A stretch of 64,000 nucleotides of DNA, taken from Streptomyces drozdowiczii (GTDB taxonomy: Bacteria > Actinomycetota > Actinomycetes > Streptomycetales > Streptomycetaceae). Location: the NCBI RefSeq assembly GCF_026167665.1, contig NZ_CP098740.1, positions 7,006,001 through 7,070,000 of the forward strand, read 5' to 3'. Every line of letters starts with the position of its first letter. Position 1 is the first letter of the stretch. The notes under the pieces are model-generated. The model had not been told where the DNA came from, did no database searches, and saw only the letters and a program-made list of their open reading frames with translations. A program made the position numbers and the translations under genes. Shown here piece after piece: positions 4,577 through 55,866 of this stretch.

Positions 4577-4636
4577 CGGCCCGTTCGCTTGCCCGCTTGC
4601 CCGCTTGCCCGCTCCCCAGAAAAGGGTCTTTCTCCA

Positions 4637-37801: not shown

Positions 37802-39003
37802 ATGCGCCCCTTCCGTGTCGCGATTCCCCAGGAGGCGCTGGACGATCTCCACGACCGCCTCTCCCGTACGAGATGGCCCAGTGAGCTGCCCGGTACGGGG
37901 CACTCGCGGGGCTGCCGGTCGGGCAGGTGCGCGCGCTCGCCGACTACTGGCGGGACGGCTTCGACTGGCGGGCCGCCGAGGCGCGGATCAACGCGTTCCC
38001 CCAGTTCGTGGACGAGATCGACGGTGCGCGGGTGCACTTCATCCATGTGCGCTCGCCCGAGCCGGACGCGACACCGCTGCTCATGACGCACGGCTGGCCG
38101 GGGTCGATCGCCGAGTTCCTGGACGTGATCGGGCCGCTGAGCGATCCCCGCGCGCACGGCGGGGACCCCGGGCAGGCGTTCCACCTGGTGATCCCGACCC
38201 CGCCCGGCTTCGGGTTCTCGGGTCCGGCGCCGGAGGCCGGCTGGACCGTGGGGCGGATCGCCGGTGCCTGGGCCACCCTGATGGAGCGGCTGGGGTACGA
38301 GCGGTACGCGCTGCACGGCACCGACCTGGGGGTGTGGATCTCGCTGACGCTGGCCGGGACGCACCCGGAGCGGGTGATCGGGGCGCACGTCAACTTCCTG
38401 CTGACGCCGCCGTCCGGCGAACCCGGCGAGATCGAGGCCCTGAACGCCTCGGACCGGGAGCGGGTCGCGGCGCTCGGGGCGATGGAGCAGGGCAGCGGCT
38501 ACATGCGCATCCAGAGCACCCGGCCGCAGACGCTGGGGTACGGGCTCACCGATTCGCCGGCCGGACAGCTGGCCTGGGTGGCGGAGAAGTTCCACGAGTG
38601 GACGGACTCCTCGGTGCCGGGCGGCTCGGTCGACCGGGACCGGCTCCTGACCAATGTCTCCCTCTACTGGTTCACGGCCACCGGCGGCTCGTCGGCCCAG
38701 CTGTATTACGAGATGGCCGACCAGCTGCCCGGCTCGTCCAAGCCGCAGGAGGTGCCGCCGCCGCTCCCCGTACCGCTGGCGGTGACCGTGCATCCGTACG
38801 ACAGCGCGCTGCCCGTACGCAGTCTGGCGGCGCCCCGCTTCCCGGAGATCGTGCAGTGGAGCGAGTTCGACCGGGGCGGGCACTTTCCCGCGATGGAGGT
38901 CCCCGAGCTCTTCGTGGCGGACGTGCGCTCGTTCATCGAGGCGGCACGGGCCCGCGACATCGCACGGCAGTCCGAGGTTCCCACCCTGGCGGAGGCGTCA
39001 TGA
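37802..39003 (+). CDS. Epoxide hydrolase (EHN + alpha/beta hydrolase) with one apparent frameshift
   Basis: About 400 residues when one base is restored. ATG at 37802 (MRPFRVAIPQEALDDL) follows AAAGGAG. The EHN domain comes first, then the alpha/beta-hydrolase. HGWPGS is the oxyanion-hole motif, HGTDLGVW carries the nucleophilic Asp and GGHFPAMEVPE the catalytic His. The frame is lost in the G run 37908-37911; one extra G gives SRGLPVGQVRALADYW. The intact paralogue at 54676 reads SRGVPVGYLREL here. It would open an epoxide made by one of the oxygenases. It overlaps the glycosyltransferase by 4 bp. Confidence 0.88.
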
Positions 39004-39917
39004 GCGAGCAGTTGCAGTGCAGCGTCGTCATTCCCACGTACAACCGGAAGGCGCACCTGGCGCACACCCTGGACTCACTGGTCCGGCAGACCCTGCCGCG
39101 CGAGCGGTTCGAGGTCCTGGTCGTGGACGACGGTTCCAGTGACGGCACGGAGGAGCTGGTCGGCGGTTACGCGGACCGGCTGGACGTGCGGTACTTCTTC
39201 CAGCCGGACGACGGCTGGCAGGTGGCCAGGGCCCGCAATGTCGGCATCGCGGCGGCCCGCGCCGACGTCACCGTCATGATCGACTCGGGTGTGGTGCTGC
39301 ACAGCGGGGCGTTGGCCGCCCATCTGACGGCCCACCGGAAGGCGCCCGGTCCGGTCGCGCTCGTCGGCTACCTCTACGGCTTCACCGTCGACAACGCGGA
39401 CGCCGAGGCGCTGGAGCGGGAGATCGACACGGACGACCCGGACGCCACCATGGCCGCCTTCGCGGGGAGCGGCACCCGGTTCGACATCCGGGAGTACTTC
39501 TACGAGAAGTACACCGACGACTTCAACGGCCTGCCCGCCCCGTGGGTGGTCTTCTGGACCGGCCACGTCTCGGCCCCGACCGCGGCGATCCGGGCGGCGG
39601 GCGGCTTCGACGAGAACTTCCGGTCCTGGGGCGGCGAGGACCTCGACCTGGGCTACCGGCTGCACCGGGACGGTGTGCGGTTCGAGCTGTGCCGGGACGC
39701 CTCGGCCATCCACCTGCCGCACTACAAGGACTTCGAGGAGAACGAGGACGCGGCCGCGCCCAACTACCAGTACATGGCGCGGAAGTACGGCACGCCCATC
39801 ACCGGGCTGCTGACCGAGCTGCGTACGGTGACACCGTTCGACTTCAACGACGTCATCGTCGAGCGCAAGCTGCCGGCCTGCGCGGACCACCTCGCACAGC
39901 ACGGGGTCGCCGGATGA
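39000..39917 (+). CDS. Family 2 glycosyltransferase
   Basis: 305 residues. The GT-A fold begins CSVVIPTYNRKAHLAHTL, with VVDDGSSDGT for nucleotide binding. The C-terminal motif FRSWGGEDLDLGYRLH is the GT2/GT27-type acceptor/metal segment. No signal peptide or membrane helix, so cytoplasmic. ATGA overlap with the epoxide hydrolase upstream and with the ABC exporter downstream. No deoxysugar biosynthesis genes are visible in the window, so it probably uses a common sugar nucleotide. Acceptor unknown; the product or a peptide/amide intermediate is possible. Confidence 0.9.
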   Translation: MSEQLQCSVVIPTYNRKAHLAHTLDSLVRQTLPRERFEVLVVDDGSSDGTEELVGGYADRLDVRYFFQPDDGWQVARARNVGIAAARADVTVMIDSGVVLHSGALAAHLTAHRKAPGPVALVGYLYGFTVDNADAEALEREIDTDDPDATMAAFAGSGTRFDIREYFYEKYTDDFNGLPAPWVVFWTGHVSAPTAAIRAAGGFDENFRSWGGEDLDLGYRLHRDGVRFELCRDASAIHLPHYKDFEENEDAAAPNYQYMARKYGTPITGLLTELRTVTPFDFNDVIVERKLPACADHLAQHGVAG

Positions 39918-41818
39918 AGTGGCTCCTGCCGGACGGTGTGGCCCGGCTGCTCGCAGCCCGCCGGGACATCGCCCGCCTGCTGCCCCGGGCCGGGGCGGCC
40001 CTGGTCGCCGCGAGCGCGGTGGTCAACGTCCTCCTCGGCCTCCTGCCGGTGCTGTTCGTGGTGGCCGGCGCCCTGGTGCTCGGCCGGGTCCCGGCGGCGG
40101 TGGAGGGCGGGACCGGCTCCCCCGCCTTCGACGCGCTGATCCGGGCCTTCGTGCTGGCCGCCGCCTCATTCGTGGGGCAGCAGATCCTCGCGCCCGCGCA
40201 GCAGGCGCTCGGCGAGTCGGTGGCCCGCCGCATCGACGGCCGGGTGCTGGACGAGCTGATGGACGCGGCGATGTCGCAGCCCGGGATCGCCGCGCTGGAG
40301 GACGCCCGGGTTGTCGAGGACCTGCGCGCCGCCGCCCGTGAGCTGGAGTCCGGGGTGCAGAGCCCGGGCCAGGCCGGGGCCGGGCTGCTCGCGCTGGGCG
40401 CACGGCAGATCCAGCTCCTCGGGTATGTCGCGGTCGTCGGCTTCGCCTTCTCCTGGCTCGCGGCCGCCGGGCTGCTGACCGCCGTGCTGCTCTTCCGGCA
40501 CGGCCACGTCGGCGGGCTCCGGAAGTACGCCGGGGCCCGGTTCGACCTGGGCTCGCAGGAGATGGGGAACGACTATCTGCGCAACCTCGCCACCTCGGCC
40601 GAGGCGGCGAAGGAGATCCGCGTCTTCGGTCTCATGCGGTGGCTCCAGGACCGGCTGCACTCCTCGTACACCGCCTGGCTGGAGCCGTTGTGGAAGATCC
40701 GCCGGGCGATCTACCTGGGGCCGTTCCTCTGGTACACGCTGTGGATGGTGCTGGTGAGCGGCGCCGCCCTCGCGGCCATCGGCACCGGCGCGGCCGACGG
40801 GAACGCGGGGCAGACCCTGACCGTGTTCGCGATGGTCCTCCAGGCCGCCCTGGGAGCGCTGCGGCTCGCCGAGTTCTACCCGGAGAGCGATCTGCAGACC
40901 GCCATCGGCATGCACGCGTACGAGGCGGTGCGCCGGTTCACCGACCATCTGGACGCCACCCCCGCGGACGCCGCCGGGGAGATGCGCGGTGACGAGGTGC
41001 CGGAGCCGGCCGGGGTCATCCACTTCGACCACGTCACCTTCCGCTACCCCGGCGAGGACCGCGCGGTCTTCGAGGACCTGGACCTGGAGATCCCCGTCGG
41101 CAGCTGCACGGCCCTGGTCGGGCTGAACGGCGCCGGCAAGACGACCCTGGTCAAGCTGCTCACCCGGCTCTACGAACCCAGCGCCGGCGTCATCCGCCTC
41201 GACGGGGTGGACATCGCCTCCTACCCGCTGGAGGCATGGCGCGCCAAGACCGCGGTGATCTTCCAGGACTTCGCCCGGTACGAGGTCTCGGCCGCCGACA
41301 ACGTGGCCTTCGGCGCCGTCCACCGCGCCGACGACACCGAGGGCGTCCGCCGGGCGATCGAGGCCGTGGGCCTCACCGGCGCCCTCGACGCGCTCCCCCG
41401 GGGCACGGCGACGCCGCTGGCCCGCCATCTGGAGGGCGGGGCGGAGCTGTCGGGCGGCCAGTGGCAGCGGCTCGCCCTGGCGCGGGCCCTGTTCGCCCTG
41501 GAACACGGCTCGTCCGTGCTGGTCATGGACGAGCCGACGGCCAGCCTCGACGTCCGCGCGGAGGCCGGGTTCTTCGAGGAGTTCACCTCGCTCACCCGGG
41601 GCGCCACCACGATGCTGATCTCGCACCGCTTCTCCACCGTGCGGCGCGCGGACGTCATCGTCGTGCTCGACGGCGGCCGGGTCATCGAGCGGGGCAGCCA
41701 TGAGCAGCTGCTCGAACGGGACGGCCGGTACGCGGAGTTGTTCCGGCTCCAGGCCGACCGCTTCACCGATGACGACGACGGAGCCGGCCACGGCGTGCCG
41801 GCGGAGGTGCTGTCATGA
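39914..41818 (+). CDS. ABC exporter half-transporter (TMD-NBD fusion)
   Basis: 634 residues. An N-terminal membrane domain of about six helices is followed by a nucleotide-binding domain. Walker A is GLNGAGKTT, the signature LSGGQWQRLALAR, Walker B VLVMDEPTASLD and the switch His is in ISHRF. Start ATG at 39914 overlaps the GT stop and the 3' end overlaps the next exporter by 4 bp. The two half-transporters probably form a heterodimer exporting the product or a glycosylated precursor. Confidence 0.94.
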   Translation: MKWLLPDGVARLLAARRDIARLLPRAGAALVAASAVVNVLLGLLPVLFVVAGALVLGRVPAAVEGGTGSPAFDALIRAFVLAAASFVGQQILAPAQQALGESVARRIDGRVLDELMDAAMSQPGIAALEDARVVEDLRAAARELESGVQSPGQAGAGLLALGARQIQLLGYVAVVGFAFSWLAAAGLLTAVLLFRHGHVGGLRKYAGARFDLGSQEMGNDYLRNLATSAEAAKEIRVFGLMRWLQDRLHSSYTAWLEPLWKIRRAIYLGPFLWYTLWMVLVSGAALAAIGTGAADGNAGQTLTVFAMVLQAALGALRLAEFYPESDLQTAIGMHAYEAVRRFTDHLDATPADAAGEMRGDEVPEPAGVIHFDHVTFRYPGEDRAVFEDLDLEIPVGSCTALVGLNGAGKTTLVKLLTRLYEPSAGVIRLDGVDIASYPLEAWRAKTAVIFQDFARYEVSAADNVAFGAVHRADDTEGVRRAIEAVGLTGALDALPRGTATPLARHLEGGAELSGGQWQRLALARALFALEHGSSVLVMDEPTASLDVRAEAGFFEEFTSLTRGATTMLISHRFSTVRRADVIVVLDGGRVIERGSHEQLLERDGRYAELFRLQADRFTDDDDGAGHGVPAEVLS

Positions 41819-43605
41819 AGGAAACCCTCGACGGCTCGTGGGGCCTGTTCCGCATGGCGTGGCGCATCCACCCCCGCAAGACGCTCCTCGCCCTCGCCCT
41901 GATGGTGGCGGGCGCGGTCTCGGCCCCGCTGCTCGCGGTGTTCCTGGGGCTCATGACCGACGCGGTGGTCGCGGGCCGGGGCACGGCGGCCGCCCTGCAC
42001 GGCGTGGCGACCGCGGTGCTCGCCGCGCTCACCCTCACCGGGGCGCACTTCGCGCACATCGCCTACTTCGAGCTGTCGGAGCTGGCCGAGCTGGACATGG
42101 TCCAGCAACTGGCGGAGCTGTCCAACGGCTCCGAGGGGATCGAGCACCACGACCGGGCCGAGTTCGCCGACGAGCTGTCCGTGCTGGACCGCGAGGTGCG
42201 GCAGTTCAGCAATGCCCTGTCCGCGCTGTTCAGCAGCGTCGGCCTGGCCCTGGCCATGGTCCTCACCGCGGTCCTGCTGGCCCGGCTCCACCCGGTGCTG
42301 CTCCTGCTGCCGCTCGCCGCCGCTCCCCCGCTGCTGGCCGGGCGGGCCGCCGAACGCCGACTCGACGGCTCCCGGACGGCCGCCGCCGAACCGACCCGGC
42401 TGGCCCTCAACCTCTTCCGGCTCTCCACCTCCGCCCGGCACGCCGGGGAGCTGCGCGTCTTCCGGCTGCGCCAGGAGATGCGGCGCCGGCACGCCGGGCT
42501 GCGCGCGGACGCGGACCGGGTCCTGTGGCGCGGGCAGGCCGGGGCCGCCGCGCTGCGGGCCGGCGGCCAGGTCGTCTTCGCCCTGGCCTACGTGGGCACC
42601 GTGCTGCTCGTGCTGCGGGACGCGGTGTCCGGCCGGCACGGCATCGGGGAGGTCACCGTCGTCATCGCGCTGGCCGTCCAGGTGAACCAGCAGGTCACGG
42701 AGGCGGTCAATCTGACGGGCACCCTTCAGCGGATGGGCAGCACCCTGCGCAGGGTGGCGGCGGTGCGCACCATGGTGGCGGAGCCGGACGGCCCCGCCGA
42801 CGAGGGCGGCCTCAGCCCCGCGGACCGGATGCGCGAGGGCATCGAGCTGGACGGGGTCGGCTTCGGCTACCCGGGTGCGGAGGCGCCGGTGCTCACGGAC
42901 CTGCGGGTGCGCATCCCGGCCGGCACCACGGTCGCCGTGGTCGGCGAGAACGGGGCCGGGAAGTCCACGCTGGTCAAGCTGTTGTGCGGGCTGTACCGCC
43001 CGACGAGCGGCCGGGTCCTGGTGGACGGCGTCGACCTGCGCCGGCTGTCGGCCGAGGAGTGGCGGGCCCGTATCTCCGTCGGCCTCCAGGACTTCGTACG
43101 GTACGAGTTCCGGGCCGGGACCACCGTCGGGCTGGGCGACCTGCCCCGGGTGGACGACGACCGCGCGGTGCTCGACGCCCTGGAGTCGGCGCACGCCGGT
43201 GACGTGGTCGAGCGGCTGCCGGAGGGGCTGGACAGCCAGCTGGGCAAGAGCTGGACGGAGGGCGCCGAACTCTCGGGCGGGCAGTGGCAGAAGCTGGCGC
43301 TCGGCCGGGCCATGATGCGGCGGGCCCCGGTCCTGCTGGTCCTGGACGAGCCGTCGTCCGCGCTCGACGCGGAGACCGAGCACCAGCTCTTCGAGCGGTT
43401 CTCGGAGCAGGCCCGGCAGGTGCGCGAGGCGGCCGGCGCGATCACGGTCCTGGTCTCGCACCGGTTCTCCACCGCGCGCATGGCCGACCTCATCCTCGTC
43501 GTACGGGACGGGCACATCGCGGAGTCCGGCAGCCATCAGGAGCTGATGGCGGGCGGCGGGCTCTACGCCGAACTCTTCGGCCTCCAGGCGGCGAGCTACC
43601 GGTGA
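41815..43605 (+). CDS. ABC exporter half-transporter, second subunit
   Basis: 596 residues with the same layout. The membrane domain opens FRMAWRIHPRKTLLALALMVAG. The NBD has GENGAGKST, LSGGQWQKLALGRAMM, LLVLDEPSSALD and SHRFS. It is coupled to the upstream exporter by an ATGA overlap. Both NBDs have complete catalytic motifs, so no degenerate site is evident in the presumed heterodimer. Confidence 0.94.
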   Translation: MKETLDGSWGLFRMAWRIHPRKTLLALALMVAGAVSAPLLAVFLGLMTDAVVAGRGTAAALHGVATAVLAALTLTGAHFAHIAYFELSELAELDMVQQLAELSNGSEGIEHHDRAEFADELSVLDREVRQFSNALSALFSSVGLALAMVLTAVLLARLHPVLLLLPLAAAPPLLAGRAAERRLDGSRTAAAEPTRLALNLFRLSTSARHAGELRVFRLRQEMRRRHAGLRADADRVLWRGQAGAAALRAGGQVVFALAYVGTVLLVLRDAVSGRHGIGEVTVVIALAVQVNQQVTEAVNLTGTLQRMGSTLRRVAAVRTMVAEPDGPADEGGLSPADRMREGIELDGVGFGYPGAEAPVLTDLRVRIPAGTTVAVVGENGAGKSTLVKLLCGLYRPTSGRVLVDGVDLRRLSAEEWRARISVGLQDFVRYEFRAGTTVGLGDLPRVDDDRAVLDALESAHAGDVVERLPEGLDSQLGKSWTEGAELSGGQWQKLALGRAMMRRAPVLLVLDEPSSALDAETEHQLFERFSEQARQVREAAGAITVLVSHRFSTARMADLILVVRDGHIAESGSHQELMAGGGLYAELFGLQAASYR

Positions 43606-44212: not shown

Positions 44213-45082
44213 TCAGTCCCACAGCACGGTGGTGCGGTACAGCAGGCGCGGGCTGACGAGGCGGTCGCAGGGCGTACGGGTGTGCATGGTGGCCTCGTTG
44301 TCCCACATCACCACGTCGCCCTCGCGCCACTGGTGGCGGTACACATAGCGGTCGGCCGTCGCGTGGTCGTGCAGCTCGCGCAGCAGCGCGTCGCTCTCGG
44401 CCCGGCCGAGGCCGACGATCCCGCTGATGATCATGCTGCCGAGGAGCAGCGACCGGCGGCCGGTCGCGGGGTGCTCCCGGACGAGGGGGTGCGCCATGTC
44501 GGGCATCCGCTCGCGTTCCTCGGCGGTGAGCGGCGCCTTGTGCGGGTTGGTCAGCCGCTCGGTCTCCACCAGGTGGTGCATCGAGTGCACGCCCTGGAGC
44601 CCGGCGATCCGCTGCTTGACGGCCTCCGGGAGTTCGTCGTACGCGGCGGTGGAGTCGGCGAACAGCGTGTCGCCGCCGGTCTCCGACGCGACGACGGAGT
44701 ACAGCAGCGACGCCCTGCTGGTGCGCGCCTTCCAGCTGTAGTCGGTGTGCCACTCGATCTGCTCGTCGCCGTCGTACAGGCCGATCGGCTGCCCGTCCTT
44801 GAAGATGTTGCTGATGGTCAGCACTTCGGGGTGGTCGGGGACCACGTACTTCGAGACGGGGTAGACGTCCAGCGGCCCGAACCTGCGGCTGACCCGGACG
44901 TGCTGTTCGTGGCTGAGCCGCTGACCGGGGATCACCAGCACCCGGTGCTCGGCGAGATCGCGGGTCAGCGCGCCGACGGTCTCCTCGGTCAGCGGTTCGC
45001 TCAGGTCGAGTCCGTGGACCGTGGCGGCGAAGGTCTGGCCGGCCCGTTCGAGCCGGTAGGGCGCTGCGGTGGTGGTGAGCAT
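44213..45082 (-). CDS. TauD/TfdA-family Fe(II)/2-oxoglutarate dioxygenase
   Basis: 289 residues, the family norm. The metal motif HxD is in EWHTDYSW, and the distal His is in ATMHTRTP, followed by the oxoglutarate-binding Arg in RLLYRTTVLWD. Members hydroxylate, desaturate or cleave C-H bonds next to carboxylates, sulfonates or carrier-bound amino acids. It is the last gene of a six-gene minus-strand operon (45-bp gap from the cyclase-like gene). The substrate is unknown. Confidence 0.93.
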   Translation of the reverse strand: MLTTTAAPYRLERAGQTFAATVHGLDLSEPLTEETVGALTRDLAEHRVLVIPGQRLSHEQHVRVSRRFGPLDVYPVSKYVVPDHPEVLTISNIFKDGQPIGLYDGDEQIEWHTDYSWKARTSRASLLYSVVASETGGDTLFADSTAAYDELPEAVKQRIAGLQGVHSMHHLVETERLTNPHKAPLTAEERERMPDMAHPLVREHPATGRRSLLLGSMIISGIVGLGRAESDALLRELHDHATADRYVYRHQWREGDVVMWDNEATMHTRTPCDRLVSPRLLYRTTVLWD

Positions 45083-45127
45083 GGCGGCTCCTCACTGTGG
45101 TGGGTGGTGTGGGTGGTCCCGCGCGCC

Positions 45128-45805
45128 TCAGCTCACGACGGCGTACGCCCGTACGGGGAAGCTGCCGAGGCCCGCGACGGGCGCCGGCACCGCGTGGAAG
45201 CGGAATCCGTCCTCGGGCAGCAGCTCCAGGCCGCGCAGGTGCTCGATGACGCAGACCCCCGCCGCGAGGAGTCCGGTGTGGGCGGGGCGCGTCATGTCCG
45301 CCATGTCGTCGATGTTCACCGAGTCGATGCCCACCGCGGCCGGCTTCAGCGCGACGAGCCGTTCCACCGCGCTCGCGCTGAGGAAGGGGTGTCCGGCGTC
45401 CGCGTACCGGGGGGTGCGCCAGTGGCGGTCCCAGCCGGTGCGGATCAGGACCGCGCGGCCGGTGACCTCGACGCCGTCGAAGAGCTCGGGGCCGACGGAC
45501 CGGCCGTCGATGCCCGTGGCGTCGATGACGACGCCCTCCACGTCCGCCAGCCGGGACAGGTCGAGCGCGGACAGGTCGGGGCCGTCCGGGTAGCGGTGGA
45601 AGGGGGTGTCCAGGTAGGTCCCGGTGTTGGCGACCATGGTGATGGAACCGATGTGGAACTCGGTGCCGGCCGGGTACCTGCCGCGCGACTCCTCGCGGGA
45701 GAGGTGGTCGCTCAACTCCGGCCCGGGAAGGCCCGGGTAGGTGTCCATGCCGTGCTCGATGGTGTGGGAGAGATCGATGATCCTGGTCCGGACGGGGTGC
45801 CCCAC
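45128..45805 (-). CDS. Cyclase-family metal-dependent hydrolase (kynurenine formamidase-like)
   Basis: 225 residues. GTG at 45805 (VGHPVRTRIIDLSHTIEHG) follows GAGAGGA. The signature ANTGTYLDTPFHRYPDG carries the family's TxxDxPxH metal-binding pattern. Relatives include bacterial KynB and enzymes called polyketide or isatin hydrolases, which open or close amide/ester bonds. Here it could hydrolyse a formamide or isatin-like group, or cyclise an intermediate from the neighbouring ligase. The exact reaction is not inferable. Confidence 0.88.
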   Translation of the reverse strand: MGHPVRTRIIDLSHTIEHGMDTYPGLPGPELSDHLSREESRGRYPAGTEFHIGSITMVANTGTYLDTPFHRYPDGPDLSALDLSRLADVEGVVIDATGIDGRSVGPELFDGVEVTGRAVLIRTGWDRHWRTPRYADAGHPFLSASAVERLVALKPAAVGIDSVNIDDMADMTRPAHTGLLAAGVCVIEHLRGLELLPEDGFRFHAVPAPVAGLGSFPVRAYAVVS

Positions 45806-45835
45806 GGTGGTTCCTCTCGGTCGGTGTTCCACGCT

Positions 45836-46438
45836 TCAGCCGGGGTGGCCGGGGCCGCGCAGCGGCAGCAGCCCCTCGTACTCCGGTTTCTTCTTCCACT
45901 CCGGTTCGGGCGGCAGGTGGCCGGGGCGGGGGCAGTGCGCCGAGTGGGCGCCCGTGGCCCGGTCGTGCAGATATCGCGGGCAGTTCTCGAAGACCTGGTC
46001 CACCGTGATCCGCAGGACGGCCTCCGCCCCCTCGTGCGCGGCGACCGCCTCCGGGTCGGTGAGCAGCCGGGCCCGCCCGCCGACGCGGAGCTTCCCGGGG
46101 ACGTCGGCGGGCAGGAAGAGCAGGGCGACGTGCGCGGCGGCCACGGCGTTGCCGAGCGTGCGGTACATGCCGTTCCCGTCGTAGCTGGGGAGTTCCAGCG
46201 TGCGCGCGTCGAGCACCCGGACGAAGCCGGGCAGTCCGCCCTTGTACGAGCAGTCCGGCCGCCCGTCGGGGCCGACGGTCGCCACGAACACCTCGTCGGC
46301 GGCGGCGATCCACTCCTGGTGCTCGGGCTCCAGGCGGTCGAGGACGTACTTCTCGGCGAGGTGGCCGGCCAGGCCGGTCGTGCCGAACCGGTGCTGAAGT
46401 CCTCGGCTGTGCTCGTGGTAGAAGGCGTCGGGCTTCAT
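45836..46438 (-). CDS. Pyridoxamine-5'-phosphate-oxidase-like FMN/F420 split-barrel protein
   Basis: 200 residues. The split-barrel core is seen in AADEVFVATVGPDGRPDCSYKGGLPGFV and in ARTLELPSYDGNGMYRTLGN, with the C-terminal CPRYLHD. It is a putative flavin or F420 oxidoreductase with no membrane segments. It sits 30 bp from each neighbour in the operon, so coexpression with the iron oxygenases is likely. It may reduce an unsaturated intermediate or supply reducing equivalents. Confidence 0.87.
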   Translation of the reverse strand: MKPDAFYHEHSRGLQHRFGTTGLAGHLAEKYVLDRLEPEHQEWIAAADEVFVATVGPDGRPDCSYKGGLPGFVRVLDARTLELPSYDGNGMYRTLGNAVAAAHVALLFLPADVPGKLRVGGRARLLTDPEAVAAHEGAEAVLRITVDQVFENCPRYLHDRATGAHSAHCPRPGHLPPEPEWKKKPEYEGLLPLRGPGHPG

Positions 46439-46469
46439 GGGGCCGCTCCCTGCGGTCGGGGTCGGCAGG

Positions 46470-47432
46470 TCAGCGGCGCAGGTCCTTCATCTGCTGCCAG
46501 ATGCGCCGGTAGTAGGCGTTCGCGACGCGCTCCCGGGTGAGCACGCCCATGCACACCTCGCGGAGCGCGGCGGGCGAGGAGTGGACGAGCGGCAGCAGGA
46601 CGTGGTCCAGCCAGTCGGCGCCGTGGCCCTCGTCGACGTGGACGTGGATGCTCTGGTACGTGATGACGTCGGCGGGCACACCGAGGCGGGTGCAGGCGTC
46701 GACCATCGCCTGGAAGCGCGGCGGCGCGCTGTGCTCCATCAGGCCGAGGGCGCCCAGGGCGCGCGGGACCAGGCCGCGGTGGAGCGCGTACATGAGGGTG
46801 AGGCAGGCGTTCTCGAAGACCTCCGTGCCGTTGATCTCGGAGGTGTCGATGTCGCGCTCGGCCAGGCGGTCGCGCATGTAGACGGCGGAGTGCTCGAAGA
46901 GCACGGTGTGCATCCGTTCGAGCGCGCCCTCGCCCATCTCGTCCCAGTAGTTCTCGGCCATGACCAGCTTGCTGGCGCCGGCGGAGCCGAGCTGGACCAG
47001 GGCGACCAGGTCGTCGAAGCGGCTGTCGACCAGCTCCTCGGCGAGGAAGAAGAGCGCCACCTCGTCGAGCGTGGCCTCGTTCTCGATGTACCGGCAGAAG
47101 TCGGGCTGCACATGGGCGGCGCTGACCGCCTCGAACCAGTCGCGGAACTCGTCGGCGGACCGGGGCAGCCGGGCGGTGTCGACCTGCTCGTCCTCCCAGC
47201 GCAGCCACTCGCTCTCGATGCGGCCGATCTGCTGCGAGGCGTTGAGCCGGGGGATCTGCTCGAAGGTCTCGGGGCCGCCCAGGTAGGCCGCGTAGTGGCG
47301 GTGCAGACGGGTCATCAGTTGGAGGCGTGCGGCCAGGTCCGGCGCGGACGCGTCCTGCGGGAAGGCAGCGGAGATCGCGCTGCCGTGGGGACGGGGGCGT
47401 TCCAGAACGCTGCCCGGGAGTGCTCCAGCCAC
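46470..47432 (-). CDS. Heme-oxygenase-like diiron oxidase (iron-containing redox enzyme family)
   Basis: 320 residues, all-helical by composition. GTG at 47432 follows AGGAGG. Acid/His-rich helices are visible (ENEATLDEVALFFLAEEL, NYWDEMGEGALERMH, HVHVDEGHGADWLDHV), as in the HDO superfamily that includes UndA, SznF, BesC and CADD. Those enzymes perform radical C-C or C-N cleavage, N-oxygenation or alkene formation. It lies directly after an amide ligase gene, as expected if it acts on an amino-acid-derived unit. The family assignment is fairly secure; the reaction is open. Confidence 0.82.
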   Translation of the reverse strand: MAGALPGSVLERPRPHGSAISAAFPQDASAPDLAARLQLMTRLHRHYAAYLGGPETFEQIPRLNASQQIGRIESEWLRWEDEQVDTARLPRSADEFRDWFEAVSAAHVQPDFCRYIENEATLDEVALFFLAEELVDSRFDDLVALVQLGSAGASKLVMAENYWDEMGEGALERMHTVLFEHSAVYMRDRLAERDIDTSEINGTEVFENACLTLMYALHRGLVPRALGALGLMEHSAPPRFQAMVDACTRLGVPADVITYQSIHVHVDEGHGADWLDHVLLPLVHSSPAALREVCMGVLTRERVANAYYRRIWQQMKDLRR

Positions 47433-47521
47433 TGCTTACCTCCTGGCCGTGACGGCCTGTGCGAGTTGTTCCGGGTGGGGGGCGGGCCCGCCGCCGAGAG
47501 GGGCGGCGGGCCGTTGGTCGC

Positions 47522-48874
47522 TCAGGCCGCCGCCATCGGGCAGCCCGCCGCCTCGGCGGCGGAGACGGCCGGGGTGGCGGCCGTCGCGGCGATCTCCTCG
47601 GCGATGCCGGCGACGATGGCCTGGGCCTCGTCGGCGGTGGGCGCGGCGGCGATGACCGCGATCATCGGCTCGTCCCAGTGGATGCCGCGCACGCTGGTCG
47701 GGTAGGCGCGGACGCCCTGGTCCCAGAGGCGCTGGAAGACGGGGCGGATGTGCTCCTGGTAGCTGAGCCCGGGCGGCACGGTCATCATGAAGTGGGCGGA
47801 GAGGGTGAGGTCGCGCTCGGCGTTCCAGAGCCGGAGCAGGCCGCCGGCGTGCAGGGAGCCGCTGCGGCGGGCGTTGATCTCCGTCACGTACAGGGTGCCG
47901 TCCGCGCCGGCGACGCAGTCGGCGCACATCCAGCCCCGGTAGCCGAGCGCGTGGGCGGCGGAGCCCACGCCGTGCGCGACCTTGGTGACCTCGGCGCCCC
48001 AGTTCTGCGGGAGCGCGCCGTCGCCGACGTCCACGCTGCGGAACTGGTAGCCGTTCTCGACGGTGAGGGCGCACAGGACGACGTCCTCGACGCCGTCCTC
48101 GCCGACCAGGATGTCGACGGCCGGGCAGCCGACGCCGGGGGCGTGCTCCACGAACTGCTGCACCAGGATGGGGAAGGCGAAGAAGGAGTCCCGCGCGGCG
48201 TTGTCGAGGAAGCTCTCGACGGTCCCGGCCGAGACGACGCCGGAGCCGTCGCCCGCGACGCCGTACGCGGTACGGGCGATGACCCGGTCGTACCGGGTGA
48301 GCAGCCGGGTGAGGGCGCCGCGCAGCTCGACCCAGTTGCTGACGACGACGCCGGGGGCGACGTGGATGTCGGGCAGTTCGCGGGCCAGATCGAGAACACT
48401 GACCTTCGAGTCGAGGTAGAGACTCGCCCAGTAGTCGGAGGTGTCGACGGAGTCGAGCTCGACGTCGAGACCCCAGCCGCGGATGATGGCGGCCAGCTGG
48501 TACGTCTCCGGGGTCGGGCCGACCATCTGCATCTTGACCAGGTCGTTGCCCTCCAGACGGGCGCGCAGGGCGCGCTGCGCGGCGCCGTCGGCGAGCAGGT
48601 CCTCGACCAGCAGGCCCGTGGTCACGGCCGGGGAGATGTACGGGGGTGCCTCGACGCCCAGCGCGTTGTGCACGTCCGCGAACCACTGCTCGTCCACTCC
48701 GGCGGGGAGCAGGAGGACGCGCGGGGCGGAGGTCCAGAACACGGAGTGCTCGCACTCGTACGTACCGCTGAACCGCACCACGCGGGCGCGTTCGTCGCCG
48801 GTGAGGTTGAGGTCCGGGTCGCGCAGGAAGTACTCGGCGGCGTTCGGGATGATGAGTTCTACGGTCTTGGTCAC
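47522..48874 (-). CDS. PGM1-like ATP-grasp peptide/amide ligase
   Basis: 450 residues. GTG at 48874 follows GGGAG and overlaps the PhyH stop by 4 bp. A central FPILVQQFVEHAPGVGCPAVD and a C-terminal YVTEINARRSGS give the ATP-grasp metal-binding E-x-N pattern. Overall layout resembles ligases related to pheganomycin PGM1, which activate a carboxylate as acyl phosphate and couple it to an amine. It is the only stand-alone amide ligase visible here, so it probably joins an amino-acid unit to another building block. Confidence 0.8.
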   Translation of the reverse strand: MTKTVELIIPNAAEYFLRDPDLNLTGDERARVVRFSGTYECEHSVFWTSAPRVLLLPAGVDEQWFADVHNALGVEAPPYISPAVTTGLLVEDLLADGAAQRALRARLEGNDLVKMQMVGPTPETYQLAAIIRGWGLDVELDSVDTSDYWASLYLDSKVSVLDLARELPDIHVAPGVVVSNWVELRGALTRLLTRYDRVIARTAYGVAGDGSGVVSAGTVESFLDNAARDSFFAFPILVQQFVEHAPGVGCPAVDILVGEDGVEDVVLCALTVENGYQFRSVDVGDGALPQNWGAEVTKVAHGVGSAAHALGYRGWMCADCVAGADGTLYVTEINARRSGSLHAGGLLRLWNAERDLTLSAHFMMTVPPGLSYQEHIRPVFQRLWDQGVRAYPTSVRGIHWDEPMIAVIAAAPTADEAQAIVAGIAEEIAATAATPAVSAAEAAGCPMAAA

Positions 48875-49731
48875 TGCGGGGTCTCCCCTGTCGCGTAGGG
48901 CATGGGTGTGAGGGCCCGCACCGTGGGCTCGCTGAGGAACGGCGGGCGGGGCTTCGAGACGTCCTGCGGTCCGTTGTCGCTGCTGTTGTAGACGAAGATC
49001 ACCATCGCCCGGCGGAACGGTGAGCTGTTCGGCGCGGAGGTGTGGAGGATGTTCGGGCTGAAGAAGAGCACGGAGCCGGCCGGGCCCTTGGGGCTGACCA
49101 TGCCGCGCTCGCGCACCAGGGCCCCGACGGTGTCGTGGCCGACCTGGAACTTCTCCTCGGCGGTGAGCGTGGCCACCCAGGACGGGGCGTCCTCGTAGCC
49201 GGCCGGCATGCCCGAGGACTCGGTGCCGGCGAGCACGCCCCGGCGGTGCGAGCCGGGGACGAAGGTGAGGGGTCCGTTGAACTCGGTGACCTCGTCCAGG
49301 AAGATCGCCACGTTGACCAGGTCGGGCCGCTGGATGCCGTCGTTCTGCAGCCAGTAGATGTAGTCCTGGTGCCATTCCCACTGGTCCCCGGAGAACGGCG
49401 CCTTGAAGTTGATCTTCGACTGGTGGACGTAGGCGGAGTGGCCCACGATCTGCTCGACCGCGCCCAGCAGCTCGGGCGCCCGGGTGACCTCGGCGATCTC
49501 CGGGTAGGTCTGGTGCAGTCCGTAGACGGAGCGGACGGTGGTGTTGTCCCGCTCCATGACGCGGCGCGGGCCGTCGTCGGCGTGGAGCCGGGGCAGCAGC
49601 GTGTCGACCACCCCCGGCACATCGGTGTTCAGATAGCCCGGGGGCAGCATCAGGTACCCGTCGCGCCGGTACCGGTCCAGCAGTTCGGTCCCCAGTGGGC
49701 CGGCCGTCAGGGTGCGAGCTACATCAGGCAT
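48871..49731 (-). CDS. Phytanoyl-CoA dioxygenase (PhyH)-family Fe(II)/2OG oxygenase
   Basis: 286 residues. ATG at 49731 (MPDVARTLTAGPLG) follows GGGAGG by 10 bp. The HxD motif is in EWHQDYIYW, a proximal FVPGSHRRG follows, and the distal His is in PNILHTSAPNSS with the oxoglutarate Arg in SPFRRAMVIF. This resembles ectoine-hydroxylase/PhyH enzymes that hydroxylate amino acids or acyl groups. It is the first gene of the operon and translationally coupled to the ligase, so it may hydroxylate the amino acid before or after ligation. Confidence 0.92.
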   Translation of the reverse strand: MPDVARTLTAGPLGTELLDRYRRDGYLMLPPGYLNTDVPGVVDTLLPRLHADDGPRRVMERDNTTVRSVYGLHQTYPEIAEVTRAPELLGAVEQIVGHSAYVHQSKINFKAPFSGDQWEWHQDYIYWLQNDGIQRPDLVNVAIFLDEVTEFNGPLTFVPGSHRRGVLAGTESSGMPAGYEDAPSWVATLTAEEKFQVGHDTVGALVRERGMVSPKGPAGSVLFFSPNILHTSAPNSSPFRRAMVIFVYNSSDNGPQDVSKPRPPFLSEPTVRALTPMPYATGETPQ

Positions 49732-49833: not shown

Positions 49834-50892
49834 TCATGTGCGGCGGCCCCCGTCCGCGCGGGGAGCGGTACGCGCCTCCTGGTTGCGGCCGAGGCGGCGG
49901 CCGGTGCTCAGCGCGGAGCGCAGCGCCGCCCAGGAGGTGAGTTCGACGAGCGCCCGGTCCCCGGGGTGGCGGGCGCGGAACGCGGCGACGTCCTGGTCGG
50001 TCACCTGGTACGGGGCGTACGCCACCAGCAGCGCGAGGGCGGTGGCGGGCCGGTCGGCGGCCGGCAGGCCCGCCACCGCGTCGGAGAACCAGGCACGGCT
50101 CGGCCCCCGCGGGTGGTCCCCCGTGTCCAGGCGCCCGTTCACCAGGGCGCGGACCGGCTCGGGGAGCCAGTGCACGGCGGCGTCCGTCGCGGCGGCGGCC
50201 CTGCCGAACGCGTCGGCGGCCGCCGGCGCGTCCTCCGCCCAGGAGAAGCCCTCCGGGGCCGGGGCGGCGGGCAGCAGGGGGAGCGACCGGCCGGGCGCCG
50301 GGCTCGCGGCACCGGCGGGGCGCATGGCCCGGGCGACCGTCCGCATCATCGGGCCGCGCACCGGCCCCGGGACGGCGGCGGGCATGGGCGACTCCGCGAG
50401 GAAGAGGGTCACCATGCGGTTGAGGTAGTGGAAGACGACGGCCACCGCGAGGAATTCGGCGCGCCGGTCCGGCGGCCAGGAGGCTGGCCAGGGCGGGGTC
50501 CCGGCGCCCGGGTCGGCGGCGGCGCGGGCCCAGGCGGTCAGCTCGGGGTCCTCGTCGGCGGCGCCGTCCAGGGTCTCGTACGTGGCCCGGTGGACGTCCA
50601 CGCAGTACGGGCAGGCGTTGGCCCGGGACACCGCCGCGGCGACCCGTTCCCGCGCCGCCCGGTCGGTCGCGCCGTCCACGAGCAGGCCCTCCCGGAGCAT
50701 CGTCCAGGCCGCCGCCAGCGCGGTCGGGGACGGCGAGTGCAGGGCGAGCGGGGGTGCCAGCACCCCGAAGTCCTCCACGGCCTGGGCGTAGACGGCGGCG
50801 ACGTCGCCGCGCGCCTCGGACTGCCGTACGGCCGTGACGTACCGGATCTGTGTGCACGCGTGCCGGAGCATCGCTCCCACGATCTGTCTCAT
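49834..50892 (-). CDS. AhpD/carboxymuconolactone-decarboxylase-like protein, extended
   Basis: 352 residues, about twice the usual CMD length. ATG at 50892 follows GGAG. The N-terminal half carries the redox motif ANACPYCVDVHRATYE (CxxC plus His). The C-terminal half (from about residue 190) is Ala/Pro-rich, with a second helical block WLPEPVRALVNGRL and YAPYQVTDQDVAAFRARHPG that looks like a degenerate repeat of the first. Possible roles are peroxide or thiol redox defence, or an unusual decarboxylase. It is 102 bp from the PhyH start and could be the first cistron of that operon. Confidence 0.82.
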   Translation of the reverse strand: MRQIVGAMLRHACTQIRYVTAVRQSEARGDVAAVYAQAVEDFGVLAPPLALHSPSPTALAAAWTMLREGLLVDGATDRAARERVAAAVSRANACPYCVDVHRATYETLDGAADEDPELTAWARAAADPGAGTPPWPASWPPDRRAEFLAVAVVFHYLNRMVTLFLAESPMPAAVPGPVRGPMMRTVARAMRPAGAASPAPGRSLPLLPAAPAPEGFSWAEDAPAAADAFGRAAAATDAAVHWLPEPVRALVNGRLDTGDHPRGPSRAWFSDAVAGLPAADRPATALALLVAYAPYQVTDQDVAAFRARHPGDRALVELTSWAALRSALSTGRRLGRNQEARTAPRADGGRRT

Positions 50893-53297: not shown

Positions 53298-54679
53298 GAC
53301 AGGGCCCGCTCGCGGTCCGCCGCCGTGTCCGCGCTCCCACGCCTGCCGCGCGGGAGGAGCACCCGGCGCAGCACCGAGGGGCGCATCACGGCCGGCGGCG
53401 GGTCGACCAGCCCGGCCACGCGCAGGAACGCCTCGGTGACGGCCTCGTCGTGGACCGCCGCCGCGCGCAGCCTGGGCATGTAGGCGTTCACCAGCCGTAC
53501 GGGCAGGCTCCGCCTGCCCCGCGTGCCGGGGAAGGCGAGGTCGCCGCCGGCCGCCAGTGCCCAGGGGGCGTCGTTGACGCGTGCCAGGTCGCGGAAGTAG
53601 GCGCGCGGGTCCGGGTCCCGGTCGCGGCCGGTGTGCCGGGCGAGCACCCGCGCACCGAGGGCGGCGACCGTCATCCCCTGGGCGTAGATGGGGTTGAAGG
53701 AGCAGACCGCGTCGCCGAGGACGAGCAGCCCCCGGGGGAACGCGCCGAGGGATTCGTAGCGGCGGCGCACGCTGGCCGGGTAGTGGAAGGAGACCGGGTC
53801 GCCCAGCGGGGTGGCGTCGCGCACCGCCTCGTGGATCGCCGGCACCGGGAGGGACGCGGCGAAGGCGAGGAAGCCGGGCAGGTCGGCGGGCGGGCGGTCG
53901 CCGTGGATCCCGTACAGCGAAAGCGAGTAGCGGTCCGCCAGCCGGGCCAGCGTCGCGCCCCGGGGGGAGCCGGGCGTGGCGACGCAGACCTCGGCGACCC
54001 CGTCGCCGACCGGGTCGGGGTCCAGGGGGCCCCGGAAGTCGCAGGTGGTGTAGGTGAGGTCGATCTTGACCTTGTCCTCGCGCACCGGGGGCAGGCCGAG
54101 CGCGGCCAGCCAGCCGGGGGTGCGGGAGCCGCGTCCGGTGGCGTCGACTACGAGGTCGGCGGGGACCTCGTACGCGCCCTCGGTGCCGTTCCGGGCGTGC
54201 AGGCGCACCCCGGTGACCCGGCCGTGCCCCGTCGTGCCGGCGAGCCCGGTGATGTCGGTGGCCTCGGCGAACCGGACGGCGTCCAGGGCGCGGACCCGGC
54301 GGCGCAGCCGCTGTTCCAGCATGGGCCGCGAGGGCGAGATGCAGGTGAGTCCGGTGGTGGTGCGCCGCATCATGCGGCCGTCGAAGTGCCAGCCGAGACT
54401 GGTGCCGAAGTCGCCGACGGGGACGCCGTCGGCGCGCAGTTCCTCGGTCAGCCCGGGGAACAGGCCCTCGATGACCTCGTGGCCGCTGGCGAGGAGACCG
54501 TGGACGTGGTGGCCCTGGGGTGCGGCCCGCCGGGGCGCCGCCGTGTCGGCCAGCTCGTCCCGGTCCACGACCAGGACGTCGTCGTAGGAGTCGGCGAGGA
54601 CCCGGGCGGCCAGCAGGCCGGCGATGCCGCCGCCGAGGACGACGGCGCGCCGGCCGGGGGCGGTGGCTCCGGCCGTCAT
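53294..54679 (-). CDS. FAD-dependent monooxygenase/epoxidase-like protein
   Basis: 461 residues. It starts at ATG 54679, overlapping the epoxide hydrolase stop (ATGA). FAD motifs are VVLGGGIAGLLAARVLAD, VDATGRGSRTPGWLAALGLP and LLVLGDAVCSFNPIYAQGM. The segment APQGHHVHGLLASGHEVIEGLFPG and the GD motif form are shared with the flavin epoxidases of polyether pathways (Lsd18/MonCI-like) and with geranylgeranyl-reductase-like halogenase relatives. Direct coupling to an epoxide hydrolase supports epoxidation of a polyketide alkene. Assignment to epoxidation rather than hydroxylation is inference. Confidence 0.85.
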   Translation of the reverse strand: MTAGATAPGRRAVVLGGGIAGLLAARVLADSYDDVLVVDRDELADTAAPRRAAPQGHHVHGLLASGHEVIEGLFPGLTEELRADGVPVGDFGTSLGWHFDGRMMRRTTTGLTCISPSRPMLEQRLRRRVRALDAVRFAEATDITGLAGTTGHGRVTGVRLHARNGTEGAYEVPADLVVDATGRGSRTPGWLAALGLPPVREDKVKIDLTYTTCDFRGPLDPDPVGDGVAEVCVATPGSPRGATLARLADRYSLSLYGIHGDRPPADLPGFLAFAASLPVPAIHEAVRDATPLGDPVSFHYPASVRRRYESLGAFPRGLLVLGDAVCSFNPIYAQGMTVAALGARVLARHTGRDRDPDPRAYFRDLARVNDAPWALAAGGDLAFPGTRGRRSLPVRLVNAYMPRLRAAAVHDEAVTEAFLRVAGLVDPPPAVMRPSVLRRVLLPRGRRGSADTAADRERALS

Positions 54680-55866
54680 GCGCGGCCCCCCGTCGAGGCG
54701 GTGACCGGCTGCCGGGCGTCGACGGCCGCGGCGAAGTCGCGGAGGTCGGCGACGAAGTGCGCGGGCTGCTCCAGCGGGGCGAAGTGGCCGCCGCCGGGGT
54801 GCTCGCGCCACTGGACGATGTGCGGGTACTGCTGCTCGGCGAACGCCCGGACCGGGGGCGCCGGGTCGTCCGGGTAGACGGAGACGCCGAGGGGCGCGGT
54901 CATGGGCGGCGGGGCGGTCGCGGTGGGCGAGCCGGGCAGCTGGTCGGCCAGCTCGTAATAGGTCTGGGCGGACGAGCCGCCCGTGGCGGTGAGCCAGGTC
55001 AGGGTGAAGTTGGCGAGCAGGTCGTCCCGGTCGATGACCTCTTCGGGCCGCTCGGCGCAGCCGGACCACTCCTTGTACTTCTCGGCGATCCAGGCGAGCT
55101 GGCCGGCCGCGGAGTCGTCCAGGGAGTACGCCAGGGTCTGCGGCCGGGTCCCCTGGATCTTCATGTAGCCGGAGCCGTATTCGAAGAAGTCCCCGAGCCG
55201 GGCGAGGCGGCCCAGGTCCCGCTGGTCGAGCCCGGCGACGGCCTCGGGGCCCGGGGGCGGGGTCACCAGGAAGTTCACATGCACCCCGGCGACGTGCTCG
55301 GCGTCGAGGGAGCCGAGGGCGAGGCTCACCCAGGAGCCCAGGTCGCCGCCCTGGACGAGATAGCGGTCGTAGCCCAGCCTCCGCATGATCTCCGCCCACG
55401 CCCGCGCGATCCGGGGCACGCCCCAGCCGGGCTCGGCGGCCGGGCCGGACAGGCCGTGTCCGGGGAGGGTGGGCAGGACGAGGTGGAAGGCGCGGGACGG
55501 GTCGCCGCCGTGCGCCCGGGGGTCGGTGAGGGGGCCGATCACGTCCAGGTATTCCAGGACGGAACCGGGCCAGCCGTGGGTGATGAGCAGCGGGGTGGCG
55601 TCCGGCTCGGGCGAGCGGACGTGCAGGAGGTGGACGGGGGTGCCGTCGACCTCGGTGCGCAGCTGCGGGTGGGCGTTGAGCCGTTCCTCGACGGCGCGCC
55701 AGTCGAACGTGTCCAGCCAGTACTGGGTGAGCTCGCGCAGATAGCCGACGGGGACGCCGCGGCTCCAGCCGGCTCCGGGGATCTCGGCGGGCCAGCGGGT
55801 CTCCGCCAGACGCCTGCGCAGGTCGTCCAGTGCGGACGGGGGGAACTCGGTGCGGTACGGATGCAT
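54676..55866 (-). CDS. Epoxide hydrolase (EHN + alpha/beta hydrolase), intact
   Basis: 396 residues. The EHN domain (FPPSALDDLRRRLAETRWP) comes first, then HGWPGS for the oxyanion hole, QGGDLGSWVSL with the nucleophilic Asp, and GGHFAPLEQP with the catalytic His. It is a clear paralogue of the enzyme at 37802, with shared stretches such as SPEPDATPLL. It is followed by an ATGA overlap with the FAD oxygenase, so an epoxide made by that enzyme is the likely substrate, opened to a diol. The ATG at 55866 is 82 bp from the upstream flavoprotein gene. Confidence 0.94.
   Translation of the reverse strand: MHPYRTEFPPSALDDLRRRLAETRWPAEIPGAGWSRGVPVGYLRELTQYWLDTFDWRAVEERLNAHPQLRTEVDGTPVHLLHVRSPEPDATPLLITHGWPGSVLEYLDVIGPLTDPRAHGGDPSRAFHLVLPTLPGHGLSGPAAEPGWGVPRIARAWAEIMRRLGYDRYLVQGGDLGSWVSLALGSLDAEHVAGVHVNFLVTPPPGPEAVAGLDQRDLGRLARLGDFFEYGSGYMKIQGTRPQTLAYSLDDSAAGQLAWIAEKYKEWSGCAERPEEVIDRDDLLANFTLTWLTATGGSSAQTYYELADQLPGSPTATAPPPMTAPLGVSVYPDDPAPPVRAFAEQQYPHIVQWREHPGGGHFAPLEQPAHFVADLRDFAAAVDARQPVTASTGGRA

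What the first reader, a model, noticed from the sequence alone, without database searches (positions are those of the whole stretch)
44213..49731. Six-gene operon uniting an amide ligase with three iron oxygenase families
PhyH, a PGM1-like ATP-grasp ligase, an HDO-type diiron oxidase, a split-barrel flavoprotein, a cyclase-like hydrolase and a TauD dioxygenase lie on one strand with gaps of at most 89 bp and one overlap. I do not recognise this combination from a described pathway. It may build or rearrange an amino-acid unit attached to the polyketide, and is the best candidate here for undescribed chemistry.
Basis: inference. Interest (0 to 1): 0.75.

Follow-up and report, generated by a model that had tools for sequence, protein, structure and literature searches.

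The report
Iron-oxygenase operon in enediyne gene cluster
Six neighbouring Streptomyces genes, also seen in other actinomycetes, probably make and attach an unusual oxidised amino-acid piece of an uncharacterised enediyne antibiotic, a gene combination we could not match to any described pathway.

Summary
The six-gene operon is real and at the stated coordinates (PhyH, GTG-start PreATP-grasp ligase, HDO, PPOX flavoprotein, cyclase, TauD; gaps -4, 89, 31, 3, 45 bp). Catalytic residues checked in PhyH, TauD, HDO and ligase are conserved; the cyclase lacks two metal histidines, as does its subfamily. Of nine examined genomes with a ligase at least 60% identical, five keep all six families, all nine encode UnbV, and in five the core is physically close. 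HDO-PPOX also occurs, with all or a piece of the cyclase, in two Streptomyces without UnbV. Best reading: a peripheral amino-acid unit; PhyH hydroxylates an amino acid, the HrmI-like HDO N-oxygenates it, the ligase forms an amide, TauD and cyclase tailor it. The enediyne context is well supported; substrate and every reaction are inferred. No held paper contains both 'enediyne' and 'ATP-grasp'. New variant of a known kind.

The parts
48871..49731 (-). PhyH-family Fe/2-oxoglutarate dioxygenase, 286 aa
   Evidence: PF05721 104.5 bits; PDB 7e01 E 4e-57, leucine hydroxylase 5nch 4e-54, ectoine hydroxylase 4mhr 5e-34; WHQD and distal H in 8 of 8 aligned sequences, own included
47522..48874 (-). PreATP-grasp (PGM1-like) amide ligase, 450 aa, GTG start overlapping the PhyH stop
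   Evidence: family profile against PGM1 E 4.9e-15; E332, N334, R336 and R337 in 41 of 41 sequences
46470..47432 (-). heme-oxygenase-like diiron oxidase/oxygenase (HDO), 320 aa
   Evidence: PF14518 107.6 bits; HrmI E 1.2e-30; E132, E165, H175, E233, D267, H270 in 43 of 43 and H263 in 41 of 43 sequences, the other two gapped
45836..46438 (-). PPOX-type split-barrel flavoprotein, 200 aa
   Evidence: PF01243 50.1 bits; TIGR04025 96.8 bits, below its cut-off of 170; no PDB relative at E 0.01
45128..45832 (-). cyclase-family (PF04199) hydrolase with N-T-G-T-Y-x-D in place of H-x-G-T-H-x-D
   Evidence: PF04199 78.6 bits; alignment to kynurenine formamidase 4co9; N-x-GT-Y-x-D in 118 of 120 listed homologues
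44213..45082 (-). TauD-family Fe/2-oxoglutarate dioxygenase, 289 aa
   Evidence: PF02668 221.6 bits; WHTD and distal MHT in 7 of 7 aligned sequences, own included
49834..50892 (-). CMD/AhpD-like protein directly upstream on the same strand (102 bp gap); possible seventh gene, but its relatives lie near the enediyne core genes, not near PhyH
   Evidence: PF02627; 43-47% relatives in five stretches
36259..37491 (-). cytochrome P450 at the conserved left edge of the neighbourhood
   Evidence: 59-80% identity in 6 of the 8 other ligase-bearing stretches
37927..39003 (+). epoxide hydrolase with EHN domain (enediyne-type accessory)
   Evidence: 58-68% in 7 of the 8 other ligase-bearing stretches
39000..43605 (+). 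family 2 glycosyltransferase (39000-39917) and a pair of ABC exporter genes (to 41818, and 41815-43605; start of the first uncertain, 39542 or 39914)
54676..55866 (-). second epoxide hydrolase (EHN)
58828..60198 (-). free-standing condensation enzyme; best PDB match 4znm, 'C-domain type II peptide synthetase' (recalled as SgcC5 of C-1027)
   Evidence: E 1.1e-70
61688..62131 (-). 4HBT thioesterase (E10-like) of the enediyne core
   Evidence: 70-81% identity beside PksE in five relatives' stretches
62247..63920 (-). GMC oxidoreductase of the enediyne core

Best explanation
The operon is an accessory, tailoring-unit module of an uncharacterised, probably nine-membered, enediyne biosynthetic cluster. 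Proposed order (inferred): PhyH hydroxylates a free amino acid; the HrmI-like diiron HDO oxidises an amine nitrogen of it (N-hydroxy to nitroso or nitro), with the PPOX flavoprotein as its redox partner or as a reductase of the N-oxide; the PreATP-grasp ligase activates the carboxylate as an acyl phosphate and forms an amide to a second amine-bearing unit; the cyclase-fold protein hydrolyses or dehydrates an intermediate at an altered metal site; and TauD performs a further hydroxylation or desaturation. Shown here: gene anatomy, family membership, conserved catalytic residues where checked, the enediyne neighbourhood, and modular conservation. Inferred: substrate, order, each reaction, and final attachment to the enediyne.
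For: Enediyne hallmarks next to the operon in the same genome: ASPIC/UnbV and two DUF1702 proteins, a PfaA-like PKS C-terminal piece, 4HBT and GMC, EHN epoxide hydrolases and a free condensation enzyme. The neighbourhood recurs with the core in Actinoplanes palleronii G002, G570, Amycolatopsis coloradensis G004 and G870. UnbV is in 9 of 9 examined genomes with a ligase of at least 60% identity. HDO best solved relative is HrmI, E 1.2e-30; [quoted passage not shown] PhyH relatives include leucine hydroxylase. HDO plus ATP-grasp is a reported signature of amino-acid pathways (PMC13185094, section read). In G192 the same HDO subfamily sits next to a 2OG-Fe_Oxy_2 enzyme; the belactosin cyclopropanase BelL is reported to resemble IDO (PMC10764440, passages), which I place in that Pfam family from recall.
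Against: UnbV is common: 18 of 199 Streptomyces, own included, and 37 of 121 genomes of the family of G002, ligase carriers included, so genome-level co-occurrence is weak in the latter. In G001, G003, G435 and G462 no core lies within the fetched flanks of the ligase; G435 has a second, more distant ligase about 27 kb from its core. HDO-PPOX-CYC is missing from both Amycolatopsis neighbourhoods. Of 12 more distant ligase carriers looked at, 3 (G009, G010, G013) have no UnbV match. HDO chemistry cannot be read from sequence: the review says enzymes with similar ligand sets diverge. No amino-acid substrate is identified.
Confidence: 0.5

Rival explanations
1. The operon makes its own small peptide-like antibiotic (as in belactosin, beta-ethynylserine or mangotoxin) and only lies next to the enediyne genes.
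For: HDO plus ATP-grasp ligase is typical of short oligopeptide pathways (PMC13185094, sections read). HDO-PPOX-CYC lies together in G361, and HDO-PPOX with a piece of the cyclase in G192; neither genome has a UnbV match. G435 has a compact PhyH-LIG-HDO-PPOX run with no core within the fetched flanks.
Against: PhyH, ligase and TauD are interleaved with epoxide hydrolase, P450, FAD and, in most, ABC genes in enediyne clusters of several genera; in the Amycolatopsis pair the ligase and PhyH stay in the enediyne cluster without HDO.
Confidence: 0.22
2. The operon decorates the product of the modular PKS at 1-35 kb.
For: Physical proximity in this window only.
Against: Of the genes called at 1-36 kb, eight have a match over half their length in the fetched neighbourhoods, the best 40% identical (26.2-31.8 kb not compared), while the operon and the block from 36.3 kb recur without that PKS.
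Confidence: 0.06
3. The oxygenases and flavoprotein tailor or detoxify the enediyne core itself (self-resistance or core oxidation), and the ligase installs an amide as a protecting group.
For: A glyoxalase/bleomycin-resistance-like gene and an ABC exporter pair adjoin the operon; more distant ligases also occur mostly in genomes with UnbV (9 of 12 looked at).
Against: The closest characterised relatives of PhyH, HDO and ligase act on free amino acids or peptides (substrates partly recalled).
Confidence: 0.15

Closest known systems
Nine-membered enediyne clusters (C-1027, kedarcidin, maduropeptin and others)
   Same: PksE pieces, UnbV, two DUF1702 subfamilies, 4HBT, GMC, P450, flavin reductase, EHN epoxide hydrolases, SgcC5-like condensation enzyme (matching to E-gene names partly recalled)
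   Different: A PhyH-ligase-HDO-PPOX-cyclase-TauD set; I recall none in a described enediyne cluster, and no paper in the library holds both 'enediyne' and 'ATP-grasp'
Belactosin and hormaomycin nitrocyclopropyl-amino-acid pathway (BelK/HrmI, BelL/HrmJ)
   Same: HrmI-like HDO; belactosin also uses ATP-grasp ligases (PMC10764440, passages)
   Different: The operon's 2-oxoglutarate enzymes are PhyH and TauD, not the IDO-like type of BelL; the HDO is distant from HrmI (110 bits)
Beta-ethynylserine pathway (BesA ligase, BesC HDO; names recalled) and mangotoxin (MboA, MboC, MboD)
   Same: ATP-grasp ligase plus HDO in one pathway
   Different: Different accessory genes; the ligase is remote from the propargylglycine-glutamate ligase (E 1.8e-6 by profile); MboB is a flavin and Fe2S2 reductase, not a PPOX protein
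Pheganomycin ligase PGM1
   Same: Pre-ATP-grasp plus ATP-grasp architecture and the TE-x-N-x-R motif
   Different: Low overall similarity; substrates unknown

Membership tests
Enediyne biosynthetic cluster | E3/E4/E5/E/E10 cassette, reported as common to all enediynes (PMC5181780, section read) | tested here: met
   UnbV_ASPIC (34.3 bits, cut-off 23.4), two DUF1702, a membrane protein with only a sub-cut-off NQR2 match (20.9 against 27.7), 4HBT and PKS pieces in L015 and the window; the mapping of E-numbers to these proteins is recalled. PksE is in out-of-frame pieces in this assembly
Nine-membered enediyne | presence of E2 rather than R3 (PMC5181780, section read) | tested here: inconclusive
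   two DUF1702 subfamilies about 40% identical, each with its own orthologues (52-54% and 60-64%) in relatives; that one is E2 is recalled, and R3 was not searched
HDO superfamily | conserved His/carboxylate diiron ligands in a heme-oxygenase-like helical bundle | tested here: met
HrmI/BelK lysine N-oxygenase | L-lysine to 6-nitronorleucine activity | not testable with these tools
   sequence relative only, E 1.2e-30
HrmI/BelK pathway | paired BelL/HrmJ-type (IDO-like) cyclopropanase | tested here: not met
   the operon has TauD and PhyH; a 2OG-Fe_Oxy_2 partner was seen only in G192, among the few loci whose genes were scanned
PreATP-grasp ligase (PGM1-like) | pre-ATP-grasp plus ATP-grasp domains and catalytic E/N/R | tested here: met
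   single-sequence Pfam scores are below cut-off
Kynurenine formamidase (KynB) in PF04199 | H-x-G-T-H-x-D metal motif | tested here: not met
   N-T-G-T-Y-x-D here; both motif His replaced, D kept; TIGR03035 47.4 bits against a cut-off of 223.05
TIGR04025 PPOX flavoproteins | score above the curated cut-off | tested here: not met
   96.8 against 170
ScoE isonitrile-forming oxygenase | score above the curated cut-off | tested here: not met
   TauD protein 106.1 against 400; it also misses taurine dioxygenase, 172.7 against 313
Ectoine hydroxylase ThpD | score above the curated cut-off | tested here: not met
   PhyH protein 142.8 against 336.5

The most novel reading that the evidence does not exclude
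An enediyne family whose peripheral group is an N-oxidised (nitro, nitroso, oxime or N-hydroxy) amino acid, made by a diiron HDO with a flavoprotein partner and joined by a PreATP-grasp ligase rather than by NRPS modules alone: an amino-acid tailoring route not described for enediynes as far as I could find, with HDO-PPOX-CYC as a portable N-oxidation module shared with other natural-product loci.
Probability: 0.28. Interest if true: 0.8.

Novelty: new variant of a known kind. Interest (0 to 1): 0.58.

Why it matters
It would tie two active fields, HDO chemistry and enediyne peripheral groups, to one testable gene set found in several actinomycete genera. It marks an enediyne subgroup with chemistry outside the peripheral moieties I know of, and it offers a small portable module (HDO, PPOX, altered-site cyclase) whose reaction can be tested in vitro without making the enediyne.

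Tried and rejected
Rejected: ORF 47436-48755 as the ligase (wrong frame). ScoE, taurine dioxygenase, ectoine hydroxylase and kynurenine formamidase identities (scores far below cut-offs; motif lost). PhyH as a halogenase: it has the HxD motif, not HxG/A (motif meaning recalled). Altered metal site of the cyclase as a peculiarity of this operon: it is general in the subfamily (118 of the 120 listed homologues; 2 did not fit the regular expression; 7994 of 8000 scored candidates were homologous but only 120 listed). Treating UnbV co-occurrence as strong statistics: the 9-of-9 versus Streptomyces test (p about 2e-9) mixes families and is weakened by 37 of 121 in the family of G002; I rely on physical linkage instead. 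A carrier protein close to the operon: in the own stretch from 36 kb on, the motif scan gave three hits of which one looks like a carrier protein, at about 107 kb in window-frame coordinates, within a 638-aa ORF not otherwise identified. Led nowhere: paper searches (no hits; no paper describing this set, judged from titles and starts of abstracts; PMC5181780 from 58 was read in part). The identity of PDB 7e01/7dzz was not established.
Full report
OBSERVATION. The six ORFs are present on the minus strand at exactly 44213-49731, with gaps of -4, 89, 31, 3 and 45 bp. The ligase uses a GTG start at 48874 that overlaps the PhyH stop. An overlapping ORF at 47436-48755 is a wrong-frame artefact. Pfam supports five of the six families above gathering scores. 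The ligase is below Pfam cut-offs as a single sequence, but its 41-sequence profile reaches PGM1 at E 4.9e-15 in two segments.

CATALYTIC RESIDUES. PhyH and TauD keep HxD and a distal His in 8 of 8 and 7 of 7 aligned sequences, own included; the Salinispora PhyH gene model is N-terminally short. In the HDO, E132, E165, H175, E233, D267 and H270 are in 43 of 43 sequences and H263 in 41 of 43, the other two having gaps. These positions match identical residues of HrmI in the alignment; assigning them as metal ligands rests partly on recalled SznF spacing. The ligase keeps E332, N334, R336 and R337 in 41 of 41. The cyclase has lost both histidines of the kynurenine-formamidase motif (N-T-G-T-Y-L-D), but so have 118 of the 120 listed homologues, so this marks a large subfamily rather than this operon. 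The HDO model is confident (mean pLDDT 90.1, pTM 0.89) and all helical; a fold comparison was not done.

CONTEXT. The window lies at 7006001-7070000 of a single 7.39 Mb contig. The genus is Streptomyces by inference: the cyclase is 96% identical to a protein of unclassified Streptomyces, and a genome listed as same genus (G094) has the same contig number and position of its ligase as the S. atriruber genome G013. Beyond the window lie UnbV_ASPIC, two DUF1702 proteins and a membrane protein with a sub-cut-off NQR2 match, read as UnbU from its place, a flavin reductase and a P450, and a PKS whose two parts are out of frame in this assembly. Inside the window are a 4HBT thioesterase and GMC oxidoreductase, EHN epoxide hydrolases and a condensation enzyme whose best solved relative is 4znm at E 1.1e-70. 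Together these mark an enediyne cluster. Two DUF1702 subfamilies are present; the E2 rule for nine-membered rings is from PMC5181780 (section read), and equating one DUF1702 protein with E2 is recalled.

COMPARATIVE RESULT. In the protein search 46 of 97 ligase rows are at least 60% identical (counted by hand). I examined the neighbourhood in nine genomes with such a ligase: own, A. litoris G001, A. palleronii G002, S. cortesiana G003, A. coloradensis G004, G435, G462, G570 and G870. By equal contig length, G570 is probably Actinoplanes ianthinogenes and G870 Amycolatopsis sp. QT-25. Within the fetched stretches (80-120 kb), PhyH is in 8 of 9, HDO in 6, PPOX in 6, cyclase in 5 and TauD in 7, with the ligase in all 9 by selection. 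All six families occur in 5 of 9 (own, G001, G002, G003, G570). Order PhyH-LIG-HDO-PPOX-CYC is shared by own and G001; PhyH-HDO-PPOX-CYC-TauD by G002 and G570; G435 has PhyH-LIG-HDO-PPOX. G462 has only the ligase of the six. In A. coloradensis the whole-genome best HDO match is only 22% identical; for G870 only the flanks were examined.

LINK TO THE ENEDIYNE CORE. The core is in the same stretch in 5 of 9 (own, G002, G004, G570, G870; UnbV 10-28 kb from the ligase). In G001, G003, G435 and G462 it is elsewhere in the genome; G435 has a second, more distant ligase about 27 kb from its core. All nine genomes encode UnbV, but so do 18 of 199 Streptomyces and 37 of 121 genomes of the family of G002, so this count is supportive, not decisive. 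Of 12 more distant ligase carriers looked at, 9 have a UnbV match and 3 do not; in at least G438 and G483 ligase and UnbV are megabases apart.

INDEPENDENT LINKAGE AND RARITY. Of 97 ligase rows and 120 listed HDO rows of 826, 16 contig lengths are exactly shared, five of them under 10 kb, against a jitter-null mean of 0.3 and maximum of 4. In 392 genomes of the own genus at E 1e-60, the HDO is in 3 and the ligase in 2, own included.

A PORTABLE SUB-MODULE. In two other genomes of the genus, G361 and G192, which have no UnbV match, HDO (60-61%) and PPOX (48-51%) lie together; G361 also has the cyclase and G192 only a 41-residue piece of it. G192 has an FA_desaturase gene next to the HDO and a 2OG-Fe_Oxy_2 gene; the gene next to the G361 HDO looks like the same desaturase by eye only. 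The belactosin enzyme BelL is reported to resemble IDO (PMC10764440, passages); placing it in this Pfam family is my recall. So HDO-PPOX-CYC travels apart from enediynes.

NOT THE MODULAR PKS. Of the genes called at 1-36 kb, eight have a match covering half their length in the fetched stretches, the best 40% identical; the PKS stretch at 26.2-31.8 kb was missed by the gene caller and not compared. Genes from 36.3 kb onward reach up to 81%. The modular PKS is therefore probably a neighbouring cluster.

MECHANISM. The closest characterised relatives are an amino-acid hydroxylase for PhyH, HrmI for the HDO (lysine to nitro, PMC13108848 section read) and peptide ligases for the ligase. HDO plus ATP-grasp is a recognised combination: 1447 HDO sequences near an ATP-grasp ligase in at least 25 unique clusters (PMC13185094, section read). 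I therefore propose an oxidised amino-acid unit joined by an amide. Substrate, order and products are inference, and HDOs with similar ligand sets do diverge.

NOVELTY. No held paper contains both 'enediyne' and 'ATP-grasp' as words, and searches returned no paper describing this set, judged from titles and starts of abstracts. The library lacks most subscription papers, the gene tables of the 28 enediyne clusters in PMC5181780 are in supplements I could not open, and deposited enediyne cluster records were not searchable by name, so a known or listed cluster is not excluded. I grade it a new variant of a known kind.

Noticed in passing
L015:6921-12760 (own genome, just beyond the window): The enediyne PKS gene lies in out-of-frame pieces in this assembly; described only, not restored.
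   Followed up: no
window 4589-7633 and 8233-11127: Two consecutive plus-strand modular PKS ORFs look like parts of one module (KS-AT-DH part, then ER-KR-ACP).
   Followed up: no
L068:18146-20000, L069:1-2900 (G192) and L066/L067 (G361): HDO with PPOX, and in G192 a fatty-acid-desaturase gene and a 2OG-Fe_Oxy_2 gene, in Streptomyces without a UnbV match: a possible separate natural-product pathway.
   Followed up: partly
L086:15280-17756 (G570): An ornithine/arginine-decarboxylase-like gene next to a DUF6271 gene inside this Actinoplanes enediyne cluster; a gene with a similar start to the decarboxylase is in A. palleronii (by eye). No counterpart was called in the window.
   Followed up: partly
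P0060, P0076: Proteins with both PhyH and PreATP-grasp domains (699 and 712 aa), consistent with a functional pair.
   Followed up: no
L016:6733-13307 (own genome): A second set with epoxide hydrolase, FAD enzyme, ThiS-like, FGE-sulfatase-like, condensation and glycosyltransferase genes downstream of the enediyne core.
   Followed up: partly
window 58828-60198: The SgcC5-like condensation enzyme, and its G570 and A. palleronii relatives, show no match to HHxxxDG in a simple pattern search, whereas the Salinispora one does.
   Followed up: partly
L109-L114 (A. litoris contigs C16 and C4): Two further enediyne-type loci: one with PksE and 4HBT, one with GMC, UnbV and UnbU but no PksE match in the fetched stretch; the cluster may be split.
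   Followed up: partly
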